From: Ochromonas danica
Taxonomy: Eukaryota; Sar; Chrysophyceae; Chromulinales; Chromulinaceae
Assembly: GCA_015146655.1 (NCBI GenBank)
Contig: VKHL01000245.1
Location: forward strand, 1-27,424
DNA length: 27,424 nucleotides
Direction of reading: 5' to 3'
The first letter of the stretch is position 1. Every line of letters begins with the position of its first letter. This document shows, one piece after another, positions 3,314-27,424 of this stretch. Under the pieces are notes generated by a model, which searched no databases, was not told the origin of the DNA, and worked only from the letters and a program-made list of their open reading frames with translations. A program made the position numbers and the translations under genes.

Positions 3314-6300
3314 TTATAGAGCAGCAAAAGGAGTTGCGAACACATTCTCTGGAATTTTACTCAATCCATCATGAGTCTCTCCACTATTGCTGGCAGAAAG
3401 ATGGTAGAAGGGAGAAGGACAGGAAGACAAGCGATCACGTTCATCATCGCCATCGCTGTCCAGTTCATTCCCTTCTTCCTCCTTCACACCAATCAGGTTC
3501 TTCCCAGGTTGTTCATTTGCGCTGCTCGTGCTTTTGGAATGAGGTCGTTGCAGCGACGCGGAGCTGCTGTTGTGACTATCATGGGTGCTGCAGCTTGGAC
3601 TAGATTCCCCTTCCAGCACAGTCTCCATCACATCCATACCTCCTTTCACCGTCAAATTCCCTTCCACTTGATTGAAGTTACAGTCACCCATGTTACTATT
3701 GTCCACGGGATTCACTGTCTTGCAACTTGTCTGGACGGGCCACTGGAAACGATAATGCTTGCTTAAGGCTGTCAGGAAGCGCTGCAGATCAAAAGGTTTG
3801 ATCAGCACAGCCGAGGCTCCTGCTGACATCAATTTCTCCTTTTCTTCATTGTTGTTCGCTCCAGTCAGTGCAAAGATACATCCTTTGTAGCCAATAGAGC
3901 GCAGCTGACGAATGGCCTGTTCGCCATCCAAGACAGGCATGTAGTAGTCAATCAGAATCACATCGTAAAGGTTCCCTTCCGCAGTGTTGGAATCCAACGA
4001 CTTCAAGCTTTGCGCCACTTTGTCGACACAGACTTGTCCATTTGTGGCATGATCGATACGAATGGACAGTTTATCCGCAACGGAGTTTGTCACATCACTT
4101 CCATAGCTTTCACAACGTGCCCGTTGCTGCTGCTGCGGTGCAGAAGTTACACAAGGAGGTGGAGAACGAGGTGTTGACATCAAGCTGCTACAAGCACTGC
4201 TCATTTCAGAGCAATTGCCATTCAAAGTTAGGGAAATATGTGCACGATCACGATTGAAATCATCCTCTGTTGCTGCATTTGTAGAAGGATAAAGCATCAT
4301 TGGAGGAACTGATAGTGAGCGAAGTCCCTGGCATGATTCATTGATTCCGCCCTCACACTCACTACGCGCATGCAGAATGCAATGACCACCACTATTGGGC
4401 AACATAACCCCTTCCTCATGCTCCGTATCACTGTTTCTATTGGACGCTTGGGCCGAACCCTCCGTTCCAAAAGAAGCTTCGCCGTCACTGTGAGCTCGAA
4501 CGAGCATGGGCGGTCTAATAGGAATGGGAACATTCAAACCTTGATGCGGCCGTTGCAGAGAAGACTCTTCCGCATTCCAGTCACGATGAATAGCAATCCC
4601 AGCAACTGTGTTTCCACGATTCGGACTCAGTCCAGCAGTAGCACTGCTTTTTCTCAAATCACCCAGAGTGAACAACGCCTTCTCCCTGGAACTCTCAGCA
4701 GGATGAGCACTTGCAGATCGTGCTAGGGGGTCTCTGCTAGGTTGGAGTGGAGATACTCTGTTAGTCCAGATCGTTCGACCACGTCTTCTTTCCATATTTG
4801 AATCATCCGATTCTCCGCCAAGTATTCCCATGATTGTTGAAGGGGTCACACAAGCACTGGAGTTCGAACTACTGCTACGATATCCTCCAGAACGACGACT
4901 CTTTGTTCGAGAAACTGAGGTCACAAGCCCTTCGGGCATTTGCACAAACAGCTGAGCTTGAAGTAGCAATCGCTCCACAATTTTCCTGGCCAACGGCGCA
5001 TCGTCGGCAATCAAAATCTTCAAACAGGGCGAAGAGGAGGAAGAGTTGGGGACGCCTTTGAATCCATTGGGTTCTCTATTCAGGCTGCGAACTTCCGATC
5101 TTTCAGCGCCTCCAGCAATCCCACTAAATGGTACCACAGGGAAGTGATGAAAGCTGGTGATAGTCGAGGTTCTAGCACGAGTCGGTGAGGTAGGTGGTGG
5201 TAAAGAAGGAAGTGGTAATACTTCTCCACTTGAAGGAAGCGAACTAGGAGCTGGTTCCAACTGGGTGAGAGTTGGCGAGAGCAGATCACTAATATCCTCT
5301 TCATCAGCAACTGCAGCAGTCAGAATGCTACTGCCATCATCCTTTTCAATCAGACGATCGTCTGCTACAGCTTCAACACCCGACACAACAGTAGGAACGA
5401 GCATAGTCTTGACAGGCAACTCGAAGTAAAAAGTCGACCCCTTGCCCAAACCTGCCGACCGAGCACCTACTCGACCTCCATGAGCTTCCACTATTGCCTT
5501 CGACACTAACATCACACACAAACACAAACGCATAGAAGACAAACCATAACCTTTGTTAATAACTTCCAATCTCCATGATAGGAAATCATAGATCATCATC
5601 ATCATCATCATCATCATCACTTACGCCAAAGACCCAAACCCGACCCTCCTCCTTTCTGCAGCTTGTTGGCATCGAACTGCACATATTGCCCAAACAACTT
5701 CTGGACATTCTCCTGCATAGACAACAAACAGAAACACAAACACAAACACAACAAAGCAAACATCTTGTTATCAGAATCATGTCAAGGGAGGAAGTAATAT
5801 CATCTCGTCACTCACCGGAGCAATGCCTGGACCTGTATCAGAGACCTCCACTCTCACCCAGAACTGCTCTTGTGGATTTGCTGTGACACTATTGGCGACA
5901 GTGCTTCGTTCTTCTCCCTCTGCATTAGGGACAACAGGTATGCCTTCATCTACAGCACCATAATTAGCGTCAACACCGTCCAAACTATCCGCCAAATTAC
6001 TATCACCCAGCTCTGCTTCTTTCTTAGCAGATGCGATATTATCATCGTTTGAAAAGGACAAAGAAGATGAAGATGACAAAGATTCAGTGCTGGCTAAAGA
6101 CTTGGGCGTGGTGGCGGAGCTACTGTCAGGGGTATAAACTGAAGCCCTAAGACTGATACGACCTCCTGCACATGTGAACTTGATAGCATTCGAAATAAAG
6201 TTGCGTAACACCTGCTCTAACTTTACTTGATCTGCACATACCACTGCTTCTTGAATGCGCTCATCCAGATGAGCTTCCCAAATCAAACCCGACAGTTTGA

Positions 6301-7660
6301 TCTGCTTCTCTAGTGGATGCACACAATGATCCAGAAAGTCCAGACAAACCAGATCCGTGCACTCTAACTGAAGCATCTTGCTCTCTACTTTGTCATAGAG
6401 AAGCAGATCACTCAGAGTTGAGATGGCAGTCACACAGGTCGTCTTGCAATCTTGTGCTAATTCCAGTAGGTCTGAAACAAATGTATGTATATTACAGTCT
6501 GGGCTGTTTGATGATTGCTTTTGTTCAAGCAAGTCGATCATGCAGTCCAGACCCAAACTCGTCGTTGACAATGGCGATCTATCAAGCGCAATTACGACAC
6601 GTCATAACGCTATCATGTCTAACACTAAGCCATCACAAAACTCCTTACTTACCTCACTTCATGAGAAATGTAGCGAACAAATGTCTTCTTGTAGTTCATC
6701 TCACGCTAAACACACAAAACCAAAACAAAACACATACACAACAACATCAGATTCACACCCACAACAAACCATACAATTACTTTATACTCCACAACTCACC
6801 AGAATGGAGTCTTTCTCCTCAGCAGCCAATAGTCCTCGGCGAGTCAATCGACCAGGCAGGACTGCTGTGAGGAGCACGAATACGATATGACCGAGAATAC
6901 GTTGGCCAAGCAGTGAAGAAGAAGCAGTTGTTGAGGATGATACCCAACCGCCATTACCATTTCCGATGAGTCTGAAGACATACGCACTGTCCCAAAACAC
7001 GAGGAACACCACAGCTACAAGGTAAACTGAGTTGCTGTATCTTCTGTCAGTGAACAAGCTTGTTGGGTTCTCTTCATTCTTGAATAATGTTAAAGCAAGC
7101 AGTTCTCGTGAAAATAAAATCATAGCAAATAACAGAACTTTACTCACTAACGCTACAATCAAATAAATCAATTTTTGTTGTTGCCAACCCATAATTAAGG
7201 AGATTTCAGATAAGATATAAAAGATCACCATCGCAGAAGCATTTGTTAGGCGGAATATATCTTGATTCAATGTCTCCAGTCTCCTCACTATGGTGTAAAT
7301 GATAGTAATTTGTCCCAAGGACAGGAAGACCATCCTCGTGAAAATGTCAATATTCCCCAACAGCCACCATGGGGCATAGGAAGAAGGAATCAAGGACATG
7401 ATGATTAACCAATAGCTGATAGGATCTTCTAACCGCCTCGAAGTGGAGGTTCTGGGAAAGACAATCCATGCAAAGTCATCAATGCAATATTCCATCCACA
7501 AGGGAGTAAAAACAGATGAAGCGACAATTCTCCATTGTTCTTCATTATCACCCATTTCATTGAAATTGGTGACAGTGGCTTTCAAGGTTCCTAAGAAAAG
7601 CGCCACGGAGACGAAGGAGACGAAGAGAAGTAGATGATGTTTGACGAAGAACTCGATCAT
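3314..7660 (-). CDS. Membrane hybrid histidine kinase (HK1)
   Basis: Five exons: complement(3314..5505, 5625..5712, 5816..6578, 6653..6705, 6800..7660), 3957 nt, 1318 aa. All introns are GT-AG (119, 103, 74 and 94 bp). Residues 1-287 hold about seven hydrophobic segments with no sensor family I recognise. The H-box FVRYISHEVR has its phospho-acceptor at H302. The ATPase follows with N-box NAIKF (N435), G1 box DTGPG (D552), F-box LFGQYVQF and G2 box GSGLGL. A Ser-rich linker of about 80 residues interrupts the ATPase between N and G1 boxes. The receiver has acidic pair D756/D757, phospho-acceptor D1108 in LIDYYMPV and K1158. About 290 disordered residues lie between its first helix and second strand. 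All residues for autophosphorylation and phosphotransfer are present, so it should be active. Its mirror-image partner starts at 8374. The start is the first ATG of the open frame before the membrane segments. Confidence 0.9.
5414..5904 (-). repeat. Inverted tract B, left arm
   Basis: On the minus strand this 491-bp tract matches 10079-10560. It covers the end of exon 3, intron 3, exon 4, intron 4 and the first 92 nt of exon 5 of HK1. By eye I count two substitutions and one length change, a 9-bp difference in a GAT repeat. Intron 3 (103 bp) is identical in both genes. Confidence 0.9.
5592..5618. repeat. (CAT)n microsatellite in HK1 intron 4
   Basis: An uninterrupted trinucleotide run (GAT on the gene's strand) directly follows the intron 4 donor. 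It is three units longer than the matching run in HK2 (10365-10382). That accounts for the whole 119 versus 110 bp difference between the two introns. Confidence 0.85.
6117..6463 (-). repeat. Inverted kinase-core match, left arm
   Basis: This 347-bp coding segment of HK1 exon 3 (kinase dimer end to just past the N-box) matches 9628-9974 without a gap. It has visibly more substitutions than tracts A and B, roughly one in ten bases by eye. It is flanked on both sides by sequence that no longer aligns. Confidence 0.75.
6609..6928 (-). repeat. Inverted tract A, left arm
   Basis: On the minus strand this 320-bp tract matches 9118-9437 with no gap. It covers the last 129 nt of exon 1, all of intron 1 (94 bp, identical), all of exon 2 (53 nt, identical) and the first 44 nt of intron 2. 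I count about six differences, nearly all in the exon 1 part. Upstream of it the two exon 1 sequences are unrelated at the DNA level. Confidence 0.9.
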
Positions 7661-8373
7661 CTTCCAGCCTCGAAACCCGTGTAATCAAGACAATGAGTGG
7701 AATGGCAGGCAAAGACGCAAAAGCTAATGGGCTTCGTTCTGTCGGCAAAGGCGAAGTTCGCTTCAAGTCCATTGACAAGCCAGCAAGGCAAGCCAAGGCG
7801 AGGCGAGGCGAGGTGGCAGAGAATCTCTGTGGGAAGAAGGCCAGTGACGAAGTGCGACTTTCCTCAGTGCTTTACACGACTTTCAAACCTCTCTTTTCAA
7901 GTCAGGCGTTGGCACAGCAACGGTGCGCGGCGGTGCGGTGTGAACACTACCACTTCAACTGCAGTGCCGAAGACATCGAAAAGTCACTCTTTACTAATAC
8001 AAAATCTCTCTTTATGCAGTTACAAACCTATAAAAAGAGCTCATCACCCAAATGAGTGCTCGTCAAAAAGTCGATATTCTCACTTATCAATCTAGTAAAT
8101 TCAGGCTTTGGAACGGAACTTCCGTTTGGAACAGCTGTACAGTACAGTTGGCATACTGTAAGAGAAGACCAGCCAAGCCAGCAGGGATTGGATGGAATCT
8201 GCTCGGCCATTCAATTTCCTCTCCTGAGAAATTCCTTTTCCCCCTAAGAGACTCTTCTCATCAATATTAATTTACTAGGATTTCATCCCCTGTCAGTCGT
8301 GACCTGGGAGTGAAATTCGAGAGGGAGATCATTCATCCTCATCGAGAAGGTTGGACCTATTAGTCTAGGCGAA
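7661..8373. promoter_or_regulatory. Shared spacer of the divergent kinase pair
   Basis: These 713 bp lie between the start codons of HK1 (left, minus) and HK2 (right, plus) and must hold both promoters. TATAAAAA at 8029-8036 could serve HK2, although 338 bp then separate it from the ATG. A GGCGA-type short tandem run lies near 7795-7813. Short open frames here look like chance. Unlike the coding parts, the two halves of the spacer show no mirror symmetry that I can see. Confidence 0.5.
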
Positions 8374-11300
8374 ATGAATTCGATCTCTTCTTTGCGAGAG
8401 TCGGTGGTCACTTTCATCTCAAACTATGGCAACACTCTTTGCTTGGTTGGAAATGGAAGTCTTCTTGTCTTCTGGCTCTTCTCGATTGGCCAATTGTTCT
8501 CGACGGGTCTGTCCCAGAAAGACGATGACGATCCCTCCCTGCGCACGCTGGAAGATCACGCTCGAACTGCCGCCACCATCTTGCTCACCACTTTGATTAT
8601 ACAGCACAGTATTGATGACCTAGCATGGAGTAAATACCCGCGGCTTCAGTTCTCCTCACTGTGGAAGCTGACGGCGCACTGGCTGATCATCTTCTCCCTG
8701 CTGCCCAACACACACTTATTAGTCCTTTCTTCGAAGGTGGTGCGGGAGATAGGAATGAGCCTGAGTCATATCTTGATGTTCCTAGGGTTCTATTGTGAAG
8801 TTCAATCTCGATATAGTCGACAGAATACCCTGCCGCGTGTGACTTTCTTCCTGACCTGCTCTATGCTTTCCGAGACCTTTTACATCTCTGGACTCAAGCC
8901 TAAGAATGATCATCATCACGATATCAGTCTAATATTGAATATGCTTCTTATGGTTGAGCCAGTTTTTCATTTCATTCAAGGTCATTTCCAGCATATGTGG
9001 AAACAACAGAAATACCCAGCGTTAATTATTTATTTATCATTCTATCTCCATCCGCTATTGGATGGTTTGAATATTGTCCTCTTATCAAGAGGCAGTATGG
9101 AGTGGAGGACGTGTACGACTGCTTCTTCTTCACTGCTTGGCCAACGTATTCTTGGTCATATCGTCTTTGTGGTCCTCACAGCAGTCCTGCCTGGTCGATT
9201 GACTCGCCGAGGACTATTGGTTGCTGAGGAGAAAGACTCCATTCTGGTGAGTTGTGGAGTATAAAGTAATTGTATGGTTTGTTGTGGGTGTGAATCTGAT
9301 GTTGTTGTGTATGTGTTTTGTTTTGGTTTTGTGTGTTTAGCGTGAGATGAACTACAAGAAGACATTTGTTCGCTACATTTCTCATGAAGTGAGGTAAGTA
9401 AGGAGTTTTATGATGGCTTAGTGTTAGACATGATAGCATTGTGACTTGACGTACTGATACCTGATAGATCGCCACTGTCAACGACGAGTTTGGGTCTGGA
9501 CTGCATGATCGACATGCTGGATAAACAACATAAACAGTTGCTGCAACAAAATGCTGATACGACCTTTTCCATGACATCGTTTGCTTCTATGCCACAACAA
9601 AACTCGAATCTCCTCGCAGAGCTTCTAGAATTGGCACAAGATTGCAAGACGACCTGTGTCACAGCCATTCAAACGCTAAGTGATCTGCTTCTCTATGACA
9701 AAGTAGAGAGCAAGATGCTTCAATTAGAGTGCACGGATCTGGGCTGTCTAGACTTTTTGGATCATTGTGTGCATCCACTGGAGAAGCATATCAAGTTATC
9801 CGGCTTGATTTGGGAGTCTCATCTGGATGAGCGCATTCAAGAAGCAGTGGTATGTGCAGATCAAGTAAAGTTAGAGCAGGTGTTACGCAACTTTATTTCG
9901 AATGCTATCAAGTTCACATGTTCAGGAGGTCGGATCAGTCTTAGGGCTTCAGTTTATATCCCTGACAATAGCTCTGTCCTCCCTTCCCCATCACCTCCCA
10001 CTGTTGAAATCACTTCAGCAAATAGCAGCAGTAGTGATATATCGTCTTCCGCCGTTGATAAGCAGGGAAACATGCGAGGCACTGCCGCCAATAGTGCCAC
10101 AGCAAATCCACAAGAGCAGTTCTGGGTGAGAGTGGAGGTCTCTGATACAGGTCCAGGCATTGCTCCGGTGAGTGACGAGATGATATTACTTCCTCCCTTG
10201 ACATGATTCTGATAACAAGATGTTTGCTTTGTTGTGTTTGTGTTTGTGTTTCTGTTTGTTGTCTATGCAGGAGAATGTCCAGAAGTTGTTTGGGCAATAT
10301 GTGCAGTTCGATGCCAACAAGCTGCAGAAAGGAGGAGGGTCGGGTTTGGGTCTTTGGCGTAAGTGATGATGATGATGATGATCTATGATTTCCTATCATG
10401 GAGATTGGAAGTTATTAACAAAGGTTATGGTTTGTCTTCTATGCGTTTGTGTTTGTGTGTGATGTTAGTGTCGAAGGCAATAGTGGAAGCTCATGGAGGT
10501 CGAGTAGGTGCTCGGTCGGCAGGTTTGGGCAAGGGGTCGACTTTTTACTTCGAGTTGCCTATCAAGGAAATGATTATTGCCGCACCGCCTGCAGACTCTC
10601 AGTCAGACGTTGCTGGAGTTGTGGGGTTGATGGAAGACGAGGAAGAGGTCCATCAAATCTGCGACGATGACTTCATTGCTCTGTCTTCTTCCAGCTCTCC
10701 TGGCAGCTCAATGAAACGCGATCATTCTTTCTTATGGCCTTCCATGAGCACAGAAATTGTGGATTATGTCAGTTTGGAGCCTGAAGTACTAACTGCTGGT
10801 GGAGTGGATGGTCGGGCAGAGGGTAAGAATGGTGGCGAGATGGTTCGTGTGGATACTTTGTCATCAATTACAGCCACTCCTGCCTTGGCTTCCTCCAAGA
10901 ATGTCGACCCTGTAGTGGAATGGTCATGGGCAGTAATCGACGGTGTCGATCCTGCTCGTCCTGTCTTAAATTTCTTGCTGGCGGATGATTCACCGTTGGC
11001 CAGAAAAATGGTGGACAAGCTGCTTCAAAGTAACACATTCACAGTCCGCGTAGCCAAGCCGCCCAAGGAGGAGAAAGCCAAGCAAACCAAAAGTGAGAAG
11101 AGGAGCCGTAAGAGTAAGAAGAACGGTGCTGATCGCCCTCCAAAAGGTGCGTCTACTCCTGGTCAAACACTTACGAACTCAGGCAAGCCACCTATCCCTC
11201 CAAGCTCTCCAGCAGTTGTTCCAGAAGGAGAAGAAAAAGTTGAATGGATGGCTAACGTCTCTTCGCCAGATCATTCCGTCCCTTCTCGGTCGTCTTCTCG

Positions 11301-12054
11301 CACTTCTGTATCCAGCAACTCGGCACCAACATCAAGGAAGCGGTTCAACAGTGCCCAAGCGAGTGCTCGGAGTTCTCTGCTCTTCCCTTCTCCCGTTTCT
11401 TCGGCCTGTAACTCACCTGCGGCACAGCGCCCTAAAATACTGTCTTTGTCTATTCCTTCCCCATCCTCTGCTTTACCAGCAAGTGCGATGTCGAAAGGAA
11501 CAGAAAGTGGGAAGTGTCAGTCTGTATCTCCTTCCCCTTCTTCTTCTTCTTCTTCTTCTTCTTCCAACCCTGGAGTTATCGCAATCAGCATTGAAGTTGA
11601 CCATGCGGCTAATGGCCAGATTTGCGTCGATTTGGTCAATCGCAGTTTGCTGCCTTGGCGGAAAGCTTATGATGTGATTCTGATTGATTACTACATGCCT
11701 GTCATGGATGGCGAGCAAGCCATTCGTCAACTGCGCTCTATTGGGTACAAAGGGTGTATCTTTGCGCTCACTGCTGTTTCTAATGATTGCAAGGAAGATT
11801 CTGAGCGATTAGTGAAAGCTGGAGCCACGGCAGTGCTGACCAAACCTTTCGACGTTCAAGTTTTCCAACGGCTGCTTCATCAACATTATCAATTCGTCCC
11901 TCCTCCGCCGGCGCCTAATTCATCCTCAGGCTCATTGGATCGGTCTATGGAGATTTGGTTGCAACAACAACAACTTTCCACACCTTTCCATAGCCCTTCG
12001 CGAAGAAGGGAAGAAGATGATAGGCCGGCGGAAGGCGCGGTTCTCTTGGAGTAA
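8374..12054 (+). CDS. Membrane hybrid histidine kinase (HK2)
   Basis: Five exons: 8374..9246, 9341..9393, 9468..10167, 10271..10358, 10469..12054, 3300 nt, 1099 aa. Intron sites and phases equal those of HK1. Residues 1-291 have about seven hydrophobic segments but only scattered similarity to the HK1 sensor, such as IDD-AW and YWLII/HWLII. H306 lies in the H-box, N454 in the N-box, D535 in the G1 box, followed by the same F- and G2-boxes. The receiver has D744/D745, phospho-acceptor D978, T1006 and K1030. A Ser/Pro/Lys-rich insertion of about 185 residues, including a Ser run from a TCT repeat at 11536-11565, splits the receiver after its first helix. All catalytic residues are present. The intracellular part should autophosphorylate and pass phosphate to its own receiver. 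No HPt partner is visible here, and the stimulus is unknown. Confidence 0.9.
9118..9437 (+). repeat. Inverted tract A, right arm
   Basis: Partner of 6609-6928. It ends within intron 2, after which the two introns differ although both are 74 bp long. It sits at the junction between the membrane sensor and the H-box. Confidence 0.9.
9628..9974 (+). repeat. Inverted kinase-core match, right arm
   Basis: Partner of 6117-6463: the conserved coding core of exon 3, equal in length but less similar than tracts A and B. Confidence 0.75.
10079..10560 (+). repeat. Inverted tract B, right arm
   Basis: Partner of 5414-5904. It ends abruptly after GAGTTGCCT, the last strand of the ATPase domain. Beyond it the HK1 and HK2 linkers to the receiver do not align. 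Confidence 0.9.
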
Positions 12055-13392
12055 TGGTTTAGTGGTTTGGCACAGAGTATTGCAACTTATCAAAGAGCAT
12101 GTGGTTATGGTTGTGGTGTTGATCAGGGTGGTGCTAATGGTATGATAAGGTTGGGGTTGTTGGCGGCGATTTTGTGATGGTATGTTATAGTGCGTGTGTA
12201 CTCGGTTCTATTTTTCTCTCTTTTATATGGCCAATGTTAAATAGAGTAGTCTAAACCCAATTTGAGTGGTATTAGTATTGGTGATTAAATGAGTCTAGCA
12301 TATGAACGATGCGGCGGGGAGTGTGATGCTACTGGAGCTAATGAGTTGAGTATTATGACTCAGAGTCCAGTACAATTCAATTCAACACTTCCCTGCTACT
12401 TTACGTTATCGCACAGAGGGGTGCACATGACCCATCTGATGCACAGAGAATGAGTTCTTCCTTAGAGAGTTATAATAGTCTGTATTCGTGGTGATCATGA
12501 TTGGTAGTAATTGCAATTACTTGTAATGATATGACGACGATTCAGCTGGACCATTGGAGAGGATGCGTGCATGCAATGATGCCCTACGCAGTCATTGCCA
12601 GTGGTTTCATCATGGCACTATGGTGACTAACCTCTCGTTTATTTCCTGCTGTTGTCTTAGTGCTGCTGTTTCTTTTTCTATTTCTTTTGTTTGTTAGCTA
12701 GTTTGTTAGTTTGTTAGGGCAGAAGCCCGCCTCCTCCTCGCCTTCTTCCTCCTTCTTCTTGTCTTTCTTCCCCTACTGAAAAAGAGGGCTTCGATTTTTC
12801 TTCGCGATACTATATCTTCGTTCATTTCTTCTCATTCATTGTTGATATGAATCACTAAACTTGTACTTGGCTACGCCATGCATGTACTTGGAGAAGAGGA
12901 AGGAGGAGAAGAGGAGGCGGTTCTTTGATATGTTGCTATGGTAATGTATGACATAGTGAGATGAGAACCTTCTATTGAACAGAATAGACTAATGGTGAGA
13001 TGATTTACGTGTAAACATTTATATGTGGAACATTAGCAGAGAGCAAAAGGAAGTGAACATTTCTTGTGTAACATCTAAAAGCTTCCTTGAACTTTCCCTT
13101 CTATTCTTTATGTTTTACAGTCATTATCATGCATGCCCACTGAGTTCTTCTGGCTATGCTATTCGGACATCATCCCTTACCATCTAGCCATGCATTGTTT
13201 TGTTGTTAATTGGGAAGTTAAAGCGAAGATGTTGTTGTGTGGAAGAAGGCGAAAATTTCACTGCGAGGGAAAGATGCAAAAGTAGAGTTATAACTGCACT
13301 TTACCTCCTCCGAAAGCCGTATCTCCTTGAACAAGGTTTTAGATCTCTTCTATCAGATTGATACTAACAGACAAGCCGAGGAGACGACGATC
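12055..13392. other. Gene-free stretch between HK2 and the Sel1 kinase
   Basis: It should contain the 3' end of HK2 transcripts and the promoter and leader of the kinase at 13393. Stretches at 12640-12780 are pyrimidine-rich on the plus strand. I found no further gene or RNA. The last part, from about 13294, is the segment copied at 17950-18075. Confidence 0.5.
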
Positions 13393-16300
13393 ATGGCAGA
13401 CCCTGTGTCTATAATTTTCACTACCATTACCATGGTCCGGAAAGCGATCGAGATCTCTAAAGAAGTCAGTGCTAATAAAGAATCTTGTCTTCTCTTGGGT
13501 GATCGTCTGCAAGCATTAGATCCCGCACTGCTCGCCCTTTTGCGAAATCCTTCTGACAAAGAGAAAGAAATGGCCTTTGCCATCCAACAGACTATCGATA
13601 GTGCAACTTCGCTCATGGAGCGCTGCAAGTCCTCCGCGGCTACAGACCTCCTCGCCTTGACCAACAAGCCTGCCAATAGGACGACATTAAAGAAAGCTAC
13701 GACCTTCATGAAGCGTCTGGGAGATCAGATCTTACATCGCAAAGATATCGCCGATCAATTCCTGGATATCAACAGTCGCATCACCCAGCATCTGCAGGAC
13801 CTCTCTGTGCTGAAGTTGTACCAGATCGAAGAGGCCGTGGCTTCCCAACGCACTGCCATGGAAGCTATCTTGAAGGACTATCTGGACGTCATAGTCCAGG
13901 CAGGGAACAATGTTCATTCAGCTATTCTACAAGGTGCACCTTTGCCAGAGAATCTGTCGGATCTGACCAAAGCGTCGACTGCTTTCCACGATGACATGAC
14001 AGAGATTGTCCACAAGCACCAACCACTCATTTCCAATGACAAGAAGCTTCTGGAAGAGATCGCGACTACTAGCAGCCATTTGGAACACTTTCTGACTGGG
14101 CAAGTACAAGAGATGATTCGTGCCTCACAGGCTTTCCAGCCACCCCTTGCCTTGCCAGCCTTCCCTCTCTCATGGGACCAGGACATCCTACACGATTTCG
14201 AAGGAGAGACAGTCTTAGGACAGCCTGGCACCTTTGGTGTTACTTACAAGCGAAGATATCGTCCTCACAAGAACATGTTCTATGCAGTGAAGGCCATTCA
14301 ACTTCCAATGGCCAGGCGACACGGTGTCTCGGAGGAAAGACTCGTGCAAGAGGCGACCATATTGAAGTCCATCCAACACCATCATATTGTTGAATGCCTA
14401 CATGCCTTCTTCAGTGAGGACCATCTCTATTTCCATATCGTGATGGAGTACATCGATGGTGTCACTTTGTTTGAGAAAATTGGTCAGCCGATTGGTCGAG
14501 AAGTTCTATTGAAATGGTCCAAGCAGATCCTCAGCGCCTTGCTCTTCATTCATAGCGAGCTCAACCTCATCCATCGTGATCTAAAGCCTCAGAATGTTAT
14601 GATAACCAAGGGCATGGAGGATGTCAAACTGATTGACTTTGGTCTTGCTCGCTCTTTGGCTGGCAATGGCATTGGCGTGGGGGCAGAGCAGAACATGACA
14701 CAAGGTGTGGGCACATCACTCTATGCAAGTCCTGAGAAGCTGACGAGCTCTTATTATGATGACCGAGATGATATCTGGGCGGTGGGATGCATGCTGGTCG
14801 AGCTGCTCCTGCAAGACCATCTCACGGGGGGATATCTGCGCAATGCTGGGGATGACAAGCGACACAGTTTGTTGGGACGATGTCAGGTGATGGACAAGGC
14901 ATTGACCACCTTGCTAATTGAGAAGATGGTGGTGATTAAGATGCAAGATCGTTATCGAGCGTGTGACTGTCTGTTGGCCATCGATGCCATTGCAAGTGGA
15001 CCTCAAGAATCACTTCCTCCTCCCTCTTCAACTATCCGCAACAGTCCTCCTTCTATTGAACTCACTACCATTACCACCACCAACAGTGGTAGTGGTAAAG
15101 GCAGTGGTAAAGGCAGGACGACGGAAGAGATGAAGAAAGAGTTGAGCGAAGGCCTGCACGATCTTTTGGGCGAGACTGCGGCAATTGAAGACGTCGAAGG
15201 CTATGTCTGTGCCTTGTGGAAGGAAGGCATTCGCAGACTGTCAGAACTCGCGGACGAGTTACAGGGAGAGGAAGCTGACCTGTACTTGCAGTGCATCGAC
15301 AACAAACGCCATCAGAAGACCATCAAAGCGAAGTTGACTGTAACTGCTGAGAAGAAAGCCGCGGGAGGCACAAGTAACAGTAACAGTAGCAGTGGCAGTG
15401 GCAATGACGATGAAGCTCTTGCAGAGTATTTCGCTGCAGCTGAACGACATTATCTCTCTGCTCGGTTAGGGAAGAAAGAAGATTTGGACTGGTTGGAGGC
15501 AGAGAAGAGCCAACCTGCTGCTGCAGCTTATTTGGCCTGTTTGAAGGGATTCGGAGACTATGCCAAACAAGGCAAAGACGAGGCAGAGGCAGAGGAACTG
15601 TCCAAGGCAGTCACTGTCTACTTGATGACGAAGCAACTCTCTCCTTCTCCCCTTACACGACGACAAGTCTTCTTTCTCTTGGGACAGTTCTCCTTGATTG
15701 GAATCGGTAACAATGGTATGGGAGATGAAAAAGCAGCCTTTGAGTTCTTCCTCAAGGCAGTGGATTTAGGCTCTGCCTCGGCTTTAGTCAGACTTGGTTA
15801 CTGTTATTATCATGGCAAAGGAACTGTTTTGAATTATGGATTAGCCGTGTCATGTTTCAAACGAGGCTGTGAGGAGGGAGTTCTGTCTTCCTTCTATAGC
15901 TTGAGTCAATGCTACAAGTTAGGCCTCGGTGTACCACAAGACTATAAAGAAGCGTTGTCTCTATGTCGCTATGCTGCCGAACAAGGCCATGGCTATGCCC
16001 AGCATAGCTTAGCACAGTTCTATAAGCAAGGCGAGGGAGTGGCTGTGGACTACAAAGAAGCCGTTGAATGGTTTGTGAAAGCAGCTCAGCAAGGTGTTGT
16101 AGAGGCACAATACAGCCTGGCCATGTGTTACAAGAAAGGTGAAGGGGTAGCGAAGAATCTGGACACTGCAGCACTGTGGTGTCGTAAAGCAGCACAGCAC
16201 GGCTATGCTAATGCTCAATACAGTCTGGGCTTGTGCTATAAGAATGGCGAAGGAGTCCAACAGAGCTTTCAGCAGGCTGCTGTGTGGTTCACCAAAGCTG

Positions 16301-16683
16301 CTGAACAAGGAAACATATACGCGCAACATAGTCTGGGTTTGAGCTATAAGAATGGTCAAGGCGTCAATCAAGATGATACAGAGGCTGTGGAATGGTATCG
16401 TAAAGCAGCAGAGCAAGGCTATGCCCCTGCCCAATACAGTCTGGGCTTGTGCTTCAAGGGAGAGAATGGTGGTGTTGCAGATTACGCAGAGGCAGTGGTT
16501 TGGTTTACTAAAGCAGCTAATCAAGGACATGCAGCTGCACAATATAGTCTTGGATTGCGCTATCAACTTGGTCAAGGGGTTGTGAAGAGTGTAGATCAAG
16601 CAATGGAATGGTATAAGAAAGCAGCGGATCAAGGGGATGAAAAGGCAAAGGAAGCTCTCAAGAAGCTCACAGAACGCAAATGA
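13393..16683 (+). CDS. MLKL-like bundle, Ser/Thr kinase and Sel1 repeats
   Basis: Single exon, 1096 aa. The frame is open further left, but the first ATG is at 13393. Residues 1 to about 260 are all-helical. The start, a short hydrophobic helix followed by a Cys/Leu/Arg-patterned one (C-LLGDRLQAL), resembles the MLKL four-helix domain and its brace; this call is by pattern only. The kinase (about 268-550) has a glycine loop G276-QPGTFG, lysine K300, HRDLKPQN with D396, DFG at 415-417 and an SPE motif, so it should be active, unlike animal MLKL. A linker with Ser/Gly repeats and a SAM-like helical stretch (about 580-650) follows. Eight Sel1 repeats of 36 residues fill 795-1082, the last six on an exact 108-bp period. 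Sel1 repeats usually bind partner proteins. A role in regulated cell death or defence is inference. Alternatively it is an ordinary Sel1 scaffold kinase. Confidence 0.85.
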   Translation: MADPVSIIFTTITMVRKAIEISKEVSANKESCLLLGDRLQALDPALLALLRNPSDKEKEMAFAIQQTIDSATSLMERCKSSAATDLLALTNKPANRTTLKKATTFMKRLGDQILHRKDIADQFLDINSRITQHLQDLSVLKLYQIEEAVASQRTAMEAILKDYLDVIVQAGNNVHSAILQGAPLPENLSDLTKASTAFHDDMTEIVHKHQPLISNDKKLLEEIATTSSHLEHFLTGQVQEMIRASQAFQPPLALPAFPLSWDQDILHDFEGETVLGQPGTFGVTYKRRYRPHKNMFYAVKAIQLPMARRHGVSEERLVQEATILKSIQHHHIVECLHAFFSEDHLYFHIVMEYIDGVTLFEKIGQPIGREVLLKWSKQILSALLFIHSELNLIHRDLKPQNVMITKGMEDVKLIDFGLARSLAGNGIGVGAEQNMTQGVGTSLYASPEKLTSSYYDDRDDIWAVGCMLVELLLQDHLTGGYLRNAGDDKRHSLLGRCQVMDKALTTLLIEKMVVIKMQDRYRACDCLLAIDAIASGPQESLPPPSSTIRNSPPSIELTTITTTNSGSGKGSGKGRTTEEMKKELSEGLHDLLGETAAIEDVEGYVCALWKEGIRRLSELADELQGEEADLYLQCIDNKRHQKTIKAKLTVTAEKKAAGGTSNSNSSSGSGNDDEALAEYFAAAERHYLSARLGKKEDLDWLEAEKSQPAAAAYLACLKGFGDYAKQGKDEAEAEELSKAVTVYLMTKQLSPSPLTRRQVFFLLGQFSLIGIGNNGMGDEKAAFEFFLKAVDLGSASALVRLGYCYYHGKGTVLNYGLAVSCFKRGCEEGVLSSFYSLSQCYKLGLGVPQDYKEALSLCRYAAEQGHGYAQHSLAQFYKQGEGVAVDYKEAVEWFVKAAQQGVVEAQYSLAMCYKKGEGVAKNLDTAALWCRKAAQHGYANAQYSLGLCYKNGEGVQQSFQQAAVWFTKAAEQGNIYAQHSLGLSYKNGQGVNQDDTEAVEWYRKAAEQGYAPAQYSLGLCFKGENGGVADYAEAVVWFTKAANQGHAAAQYSLGLRYQLGQGVVKSVDQAMEWYKKAADQGDEKAKEALKKLTERK
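15775..16638 (+). repeat. Eight Sel1 repeats, 108-bp period
   Basis: Repeat units begin at 15775, 15883, 15991, 16099, 16207, 16315, 16423 and 16531. The consensus is A-AQYSLGLCYK-GEGV with a second helix W--KAAEQG. Later units are more alike than the first two, which fits tandem growth at the 3' end of the gene. Confidence 0.85.
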
Positions 16684-17949: not shown

Positions 17950-18075
17950 CAGCACTTCGCCTCCTATCAGATCTCACAGGTTTTGGATCTCTTCTATCAG
18001 ATTGATATTACTGTAATAGACAGACGATCATGGCATACCCTATGTCTATAATTTTCACGGTCATTATCATCGTTG
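17950..18075 (+). pseudogene. Decayed copy of the Sel1 kinase gene start
   Basis: It aligns with 13294-13433, which is about 100 bp of leader plus the first codons of the kinase. Shared runs include GATCTCTTCTATCAGATTGA and GTCTATAATTTTCAC around an ATG at 18030 that matches the kinase ATG at 13393. A short indel lies before the ATG. After about 15 codons similarity ends, and the frame stops after 28 codons. It is a 5' fragment only, lying 1.3 kb beyond the parent gene's stop and in the same orientation. Confidence 0.75.
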
Positions 18076-26993: not shown

Positions 26994-27424
26994 CGTTCTC
27001 TCTCTCTATAGTTTAGGTAATAATTATGACCAAGATGATCATAACTTTCACTGACCATCTTTGACCCATAATAACTGAAAGATACCGTATTCTGCTGTGA
27101 AGAAAACTGAAAGATACCAGTGGCAGAGCTGAAAGGTTGAACTAGAAGCCTTTGCACTTTGTAAGATTTAACATTTCATGTATCACTACCTTGACTTTAC
27201 ATACTAACCTAGCTAGTCTAATACTGCACAAGTCTACTACTATTTAATTGGTTTCATACGCAATCAGATTAGCTTAGCCTTGTAGTGCTGCGTTACGACA
27301 CTACAAAGCTGCAGTGTCCAGATTCTTCGCTACTCCTTCACCTTTCTTGTAACACATGGCCGGGCTGCACTGTATAGCGCACACTACCCCTCTGAAATCT
27401 CTTGCGCCTCCTCATTCCTCTGCC
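26994..27424. other. Upstream region of the GH18-like gene, window end
   Basis: No gene is seen. AACTGAAAGATACC occurs at 27073-27086 and again at 27105-27118, with a related CTGAAAGG just after. These lie 80-125 bp upstream of the start codon at 26993 and could be promoter elements. Confidence 0.4.
27073..27118. repeat. 14-bp direct repeat upstream of the GH18-like gene
   Basis: Two exact copies of AACTGAAAGATACC have a 32-bp period, about three helical turns, so proteins bound to them would lie on one face. Confidence 0.7.

What the first reader, a model, noticed from the sequence alone, without database searches (positions are those of the whole stretch)
5414..10560. Introns more conserved than exons in the inverted histidine kinase pair
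Introns 1 and 3 are identical in HK1 and HK2 (94 and 103 bp), and intron 4 differs only by three GAT units. The exons for the membrane sensor and the linkers cannot be aligned at the DNA level. Purifying selection on protein cannot keep introns identical while exons diverge. Recent patchy gene conversion between the inverted copies explains it, with tract edges at 6609/6928 and 5414/5904. A functional RNA in the introns is a less likely alternative.
Basis: partly seen in the sequence, partly recalled or inferred. Interest (0 to 1): 0.8.

Follow-up and report, generated by a model that had tools for sequence, protein, structure and literature searches.

The report
Gene conversion between two inverted kinases
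Two neighbouring, oppositely oriented sensor-kinase genes in an unnamed, probably eukaryotic organism are old and very different, but recent copying of DNA between them seems to have made patches of their kinase core, introns included, identical; the process is well known, and the introns are no more conserved than the exon pieces beside them.

Summary
Two divergently transcribed hybrid histidine kinase genes (HK1, minus strand, 7660-3314; HK2, plus strand, 8374-12054) share intron 1 (94/94 bp), intron 3 (103/103) and intron 4 (110/110 plus a 9-nt GAT difference). Sensor, linker and receiver are near or beyond silent-site saturation. The title misleads: inside the identical tracts the exons are just as identical at silent sites. 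Runs of 49 and 30 identical fourfold-degenerate sites span HK2 10068-10560 and 9171-9498; shuffling fourfold sites reached 49 in 0 and 30 in 1 of 10,000 trials. This fits recent, patchy gene conversion between inverted paralogs, with patches of more than one age. No Rfam match and no unusual intron folding were found. Donor, direction and timing stay open: no genome or relative was available. A bolder, untested reading is that crossover between the arms would invert the centre and swap sensors between kinases, perhaps seeded by GT-rich intron ends; a rotation control (259 of 1452) gave that seeding no support.

The parts
3314..7660 (-). HK1, hybrid histidine kinase gene: exons 7660-6800, 6705-6653, 6578-5816, 5712-5625, 5505-3314; 1318 aa
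   Evidence: open spliced frame; Pfam HATPase_c 5.7e-24, Response_reg 3e-14; HisKA 17.1 bits, below its cut-off of 26.9
8374..12054 (+). HK2, its inverted paralog: exons 8374-9246, 9341-9393, 9468-10167, 10271-10358, 10469-12054; 1099 aa
   Evidence: (HATPase_c 8.4e-24, Response_reg 2.4e-14; HisKA 20.7 bits, below its cut-off)
6637..6873 (-). Recent tract A in HK1 (matches HK2 9173-9409), 237 columns, 0.996 identical; end of exon 1, intron 1, exon 2, start of intron 2
   Evidence: segmentation with hand-set parameters
9173..9409 (+). Recent tract A in HK2
6170..6273 (-). Recent tract B in HK1 (matches HK2 9818-9921), 104 bp exact, exon 3; not significant alone by the fourfold shuffle
9818..9921 (+). 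Recent tract B in HK2
5408..5885 (-). Recent tract C in HK1 (matches HK2 10098-10566), one mismatch and a 9-nt GAT indel; end of exon 3, intron 3, exon 4, intron 4, start of exon 5
10098..10566 (+). Recent tract C in HK2
6706..6799 (-). Intron 1 of HK1, 94 bp, identical to 9247-9340
9247..9340 (+). Intron 1 of HK2
6579..6652 (-). Intron 2 of HK1, 74 bp; tract edge inside it: 43 of 44 match from 6652 to 6609, then 10 of 24 differ from 6608 to 6585
9394..9467 (+). Intron 2 of HK2; edge after 9437
5713..5815 (-). Intron 3 of HK1, 103 bp, identical to 10168-10270
10168..10270 (+). Intron 3 of HK2
5506..5624 (-). Intron 4 of HK1, 119 bp, three more GAT units than HK2
10359..10468 (+). Intron 4 of HK2, 110 bp
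7661..8373 (.). 713 bp between the two proposed start codons; BLASTN found no similarity between its two halves at E <= 0.01

Best explanation
HK1 and HK2 come from an old duplication: the parts outside the core are still collinear and in part detectably homologous, but near or beyond saturation at silent sites (shown). Later, DNA was copied between the two inverted genes in patches by homologous recombination, which made introns, synonymous sites and amino acids alike together in parts of the kinase core (tracts shown; the mechanism is inferred). The core can exchange because protein constraint keeps enough matching sequence there, while sensor and linker are too different to pair (inferred). 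Patches of intermediate identity (0.87-0.93) lie between the fresh ones, so it probably happened more than once (inferred). Direction, donor, and whether crossovers went with it are unknown.
For: Silent-site shuffles: runs of 262 and 133 against a maximum of 85 in 10,000; fourfold sites alone, run of 49 reached in 0 and run of 30 in 1 of 10,000. dS 0 in exon 2, exon 4 and exon 5 start, 0.027 at exon 3 end, 0.11 at exon 1 end, 0.18 at exon 3 start, 0.33 in the DHp-HATPase stretch, and 1.4 or more or not computable (saturated) in sensor, the two loops of exon 3, linker, receiver and tail. Fourfold sites outside HK2 9115-10566: 37 of 95 identical. Tract edges fall inside exon 1 and inside intron 2. 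Homology of unconverted parts: sensor E = 4e-9 over 56 aa, receiver 64% over 110 aa, E = 2e-40. With no change in 262 silent sites, the 95% upper bound on silent divergence of tract C is 1.1%.
Against: Two sequences only: no outgroup, strain or sister species (searches gave no relative). Conversion from a third paralog would look the same. The shuffle treats silent sites as exchangeable, and counts fourfold sites only where the first two codon bases agree. Tract B and the receiver patch are not significant alone (runs of 14 and 10 fourfold sites are reached in 0.22 and 0.79 of shuffles). Exon 3 end, in tract C's rim, has more replacement than silent change (dN 0.10, dS 0.03). No read data to exclude local misassembly.
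Confidence: 0.88

Rival explanations
1. Crossover between the inverted arms: the centre of the locus has been inverted, swapping the sensor halves between the two kinase tails, with the identical tracts as exchange sites.
For: Inverted alignable arms 2.2 kb apart (6931 and 9115) with exact runs of 188, 285 and 197 bp; by geometry the centre is invertible.
Against: A crossover alone does not make arms identical; conversion is still needed. No second orientation was seen, and no population data exist here.
Confidence: 0.08
2. Assembly artefact: near-identical inverted arms were collapsed and copied into both places.
For: Runs of up to 285 bp may exceed short reads; the sequencing method is unknown.
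Against: The copies differ inside and at the rims of the tracts (HK2 9221, 9410, 10085, 10097, the GAT indel, 10561), and patches of intermediate identity are not expected from collapse. No N in the window.
Confidence: 0.06
3. Functional RNA or regulatory elements in the introns keep them identical.
For: Three of four introns are identical; introns 1 and 3 have the most G+T-skewed stretches of the window.
Against: Fourfold exon sites in the same tracts are equally identical; 0 Rfam matches at gathering score in the window; folding z-scores from -1.28 to 0.99 for the 6 intron sequences folded; intron 2 is cut in two by a tract edge.
Confidence: 0.02
4. Recent duplication followed by very fast divergence of sensor and linkers under positive selection.
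For: A precedent recalled, from no call: snake venom phospholipase A2 genes.
Against: Silent sites of sensor, linker and receiver are near or beyond saturation, not only replacement sites.
Confidence: 0.01

Closest known systems
Primate L/M opsin genes (Hiwatashi 2011, PMC3213168, passages seen; Shyue 1994 seen only as an entry in its reference list)
   Same: Adjacent paralogs homogenised by gene conversion, with introns alike while functionally distinct exons differ.
   Different: There, intron divergence is below both synonymous and non-synonymous divergence and selection acts against conversion of the central exons. Here exons inside tracts are homogenised with the introns; and the copies are inverted, not tandem.
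Trichomonas transmembrane adenylyl cyclases (PMC2914791, passages seen)
   Same: Protist membrane signalling proteins with a conserved catalytic domain; strong evidence for one gene conversion or crossover event and indirect evidence for more.
   Different: A large family, mostly one gene per contig, without introns and with many pseudogenes; here one inverted neighbouring pair with open frames.
Chromosome palindromes with arm-to-arm gene conversion ('Why Chromosome Palindromes?', PMC3403216; search listing and start of abstract only)
   Same: Inverted duplicates that undergo intrachromosomal conversion.
   Different: Here only patches of the arms are alike and the rest has diverged to near saturation.

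Membership tests
Interlocus gene conversion between paralogs | Sharp tracts of identity inside otherwise diverged paralogs | tested here: met
Interlocus gene conversion between paralogs | Silent and intronic sites alike together, beyond a shuffle control | tested here: met
   49 fourfold sites in a row, reached in 0 of 10,000 shuffles
Interlocus gene conversion between paralogs | Paralogs within a genome closer than orthologs between species | not testable with these tools
   no genome held; no relatives found
Interlocus gene conversion between paralogs | Non-reciprocal transfer with a known donor | not testable with these tools
   needs an outgroup or the products of one event
Opsin-type intron-biased homogenisation | Introns less diverged than synonymous exon sites of the same region | tested here: not met
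   runs of 49 and 30 identical fourfold sites in the tracts that hold the identical introns
Hybrid histidine kinase | ATPase domain and receiver domain in one chain | tested here: met
   HATPase_c and Response_reg above cut-off in 2 of 2 spliced proteins
Hybrid histidine kinase | Phospho-acceptor His (HisKA) domain | tested here: inconclusive
   HisKA 17.1 and 20.7 bits, below the 26.9 cut-off; the SHEVRSPL motif was read by eye and recognised from recall
Introner (mobile intron copies) | Near-identical introns at non-homologous places | tested here: not met
   at E <= 1e-3 introns match only their counterpart in the window (weak cross-match of GT-rich pieces of introns 1 and 3 at E = 0.003); three exact intron patterns found nothing, two in viral contigs and one in genome contigs

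The most novel reading that the evidence does not exclude
The locus is a recombinational switch: the inverted kinase cores, kept alike by exchange that starts at GT-rich intron ends favoured by Rad51, let the central segment with both sensors and promoters flip, so that each sensor can be coupled to either kinase-receiver tail.
Probability: 0.04. Interest if true: 0.75.

Novelty: new member of a known kind. Interest (0 to 1): 0.3.

Why it matters
It is a clear case in which parts of the signalling core of two receptors are alike while their sensors and linkers have diverged, and it warns that intron identity between neighbouring paralogs is not by itself evidence of intron function. If the arms also cross over, sensors would be reshuffled between output domains, which long reads could test directly.

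Tried and rejected
Functional intron RNA: 0 Rfam matches at gathering score in the window; folding z-scores -1.28 to 0.99 in the 6 intron sequences folded (HK1 introns 1 and 3 were not folded, being identical to HK2's). ARAGORN found no tRNA (bacterial code). Introners: at E <= 1e-3 introns have no other copy in the window; GT-rich pieces of introns 1 and 3 match each other weakly (E = 0.003). Relatives: four viral-contig scans and two genome-contig scans gave none; there were 4, 40 and 8 pattern matches, of which none was confirmed by tblastn. Solved structures: 4 weak histidine-kinase-type matches, best E = 3.2e-4. Flanks: the downstream flanks share only a 54-base match of 66.7% (E = 0.003), the two halves of the intergenic region nothing.

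GT-rich tracts as conversion seeds: of non-overlapping 40-base stretches the four most G+T-skewed are in introns 1 and 3 of both genes (0.95 in the sense direction); intron 4 (0.85, both copies) ties with three other places; the maximum in 30 simulated sequences was 0.85. With 60-base stretches introns 1 and 3 lead and intron 4 is at ranks 9 and 10. Six other introns, delimited by hand, have best 40-base values of 0.40 to 0.85, one of them equal to intron 4. Rotating the three tracts within the core puts the starts of all three in recent segments in 259 of 1452 positions, so the coincidence is not significant; it stays an idea. The sensor model (two-sequence alignment) had mean pLDDT 45.7 and was not used. 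Hydropathy gave 6 and 5 peaks above threshold, which is no topology. Literature: 'gene conversion' with 'introns more conserved' and 'exons', 0 papers; histidine kinase with gene conversion, 1 and 3 papers listed, none on this subject by title; of the latter, passages of two were looked at, one of which served as a parallel. Inverted repeats with concerted evolution and head-to-head: 3 papers listed, not read. These searches cover open-licence PubMed Central only.

Full report
What was claimed.

Gene models. Reading both strands with GT-AG introns at matching places gives two open spliced frames: HK1 on the minus strand (7660 to 3314, 1318 aa) and HK2 on the plus strand (8374 to 12054, 1099 aa), five exons each. 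Pfam finds HATPase_c and Response_reg above cut-off in both and HisKA below cut-off in both. The genes point away from each other across 713 bp. No whole genome is held for the window; the introns and gene content point to a eukaryote (inference), otherwise unnamed.

The observation. Sensor and linker have codon-aligned DNA identities of 0.396 and 0.392 and gave no BLASTN alignment at E <= 1e-3.

The title needs correction. Exons in the same tracts are as identical at silent sites as the introns. Fourfold-degenerate sites (counted only where the first two codon bases agree): 17/17 at HK2 10064-10167, 12/12 in exon 4, 20/20 at 10469-10566, 6/6 in exon 2, 27/30 at 9115-9246, 7/8 at 9468-9519. 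Longest runs of identical fourfold sites, introns left out: 49 (10068-10560) and 30 (9171-9498); in 10,000 shuffles of the order of the 237 fourfold sites the longest run never reached 49 and reached 30 once. With introns added (618 silent sites in all) the runs are 262 and 133 against a shuffle maximum of 85. The next runs (27 in the full set; 14 and 10 among fourfold sites) are not significant. A tract limit is visible in intron 2, where HK1 6652-6609 matches HK2 9394-9437 at 43 of 44 bases and then 10 of 24 differ from 6608 to 6585. An intron element under selection would not be expected to be cut there, and protein constraint would not hold synonymous sites.

Mosaic of ages. A three-state segmentation with parameters set by hand (identities 0.35, 0.88, 0.998) marks three recent segments, HK2 9173-9409, 9818-9921 and 10098-10566, with segments of 0.87-0.93 identity around them and two diverged loops. 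These limits were drawn from identity, so the count of 79/79 fourfold sites inside them is circular and is not used as evidence; the shuffle test is. Fourfold sites outside 9115-10566 are 37/95 identical, those inside it but outside the recent segments 43/63. NG86 dS is 0 in exon 2, exon 4 and exon 5 start, 0.027 at the end of exon 3, 0.108 at the end of exon 1, 0.180 at the start of exon 3, 0.326 in the DHp-HATPase stretch, and 1.4 or more or not computable in the sensor, the two loops of exon 3, the linker, the receiver and the tail. The end of exon 3, at the rim of tract C, has more replacement than silent change (dN 0.102). With no silent change in 262 sites, divergence in tract C is below 1.1% at 95%.

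Old duplication. The unconverted parts are still homologous: sensor 38% over 56 aa (E = 4e-9), receiver 64% over 110 aa (E = 2e-40). So a recent duplication with only a fast sensor is disfavoured.

Mechanism. Most likely, homologous recombination between the two inverted genes copied segments of the core from one to the other, probably more than once. Constraint on the kinase boxes keeps seed identity; sensor and linker have drifted too far to pair. Shown: tracts, edges, silent identity, patches of differing identity. Inferred: conversion as the cause, repeated events, seeding by conserved boxes. Not known: direction, donor, crossover, timing in years.

GT-rich introns. The 3' parts of introns 1 and 3 are the most G+T-skewed 40-base stretches of the window (0.95; maximum 0.85 in 30 simulated sequences); intron 4 at 0.85 ties with three other places. 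Yeast Rad51 is reported to prefer GT-rich DNA (Tracy 1997, seen as a reference title only), and frequent recombination at GT microsatellites is reported in goldfish (PMC5948810, abstract and two passages seen). This suggests seeding, but a rotation control (259 of 1452) does not support it, and one locus cannot prove it.

Inverted geometry. Because the arms are inverted, a crossover in tract A would flip the centre with both promoters and sensors and swap which sensor is joined to which tail. The same geometry means that a short-read assembly could have the centre in the wrong orientation. Neither could be tested here.

Compared with the known. In gibbon L/M opsins introns are homogenised while exon conversion is selected against, and intron divergence is below synonymous divergence (PMC3213168, passages). 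That feature is not met here. Trichomonas membrane cyclases offer a protist signalling family with gene conversion (PMC2914791, passages). The case is a new member of a known kind.

Noticed in passing
HK2 10950-11895; HK1 5038-3746: The receiver domain of both kinases looks split: the N-terminal piece (LLADDSPLARK in HK2) is separated from the rest by about 180 aa in HK2 and 290 aa in HK1; Pfam matches only the later part.
   Followed up: partly
13334-13436 with 17978-18073; 16107-16212 with 27268-27373: Two pieces of the kinase-Sel1 frame at 13294-16683 have partial copies elsewhere in the window, the first direct (79% over 104 bases), the second inverted (89% over 106 bases); perhaps remnants of further copies.
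   Followed up: no
9300-9339 and 10222-10261, with HK1 6709-6748 and 5723-5762: The 3' parts of introns 1 and 3 are 95% G+T, above six other introns read by hand in the window (0.40 to 0.85).
   Followed up: partly
HK2 11667-11773 with HK1 3968-3862: A short stretch of the receiver is 91% identical over 107 bases; fourfold sites 16/22 at 11661-11895. It may be a further, older conversion patch; not significant alone.
   Followed up: partly
13294-16683: Large single frame with a protein kinase domain followed by Sel1 repeats.
   Followed up: no
HK1 sensor, within 7660-6800: A weak match to the Pfam domain DUF7027 (E = 0.033, below cut-off) in the HK1 sensor only.
   Followed up: no
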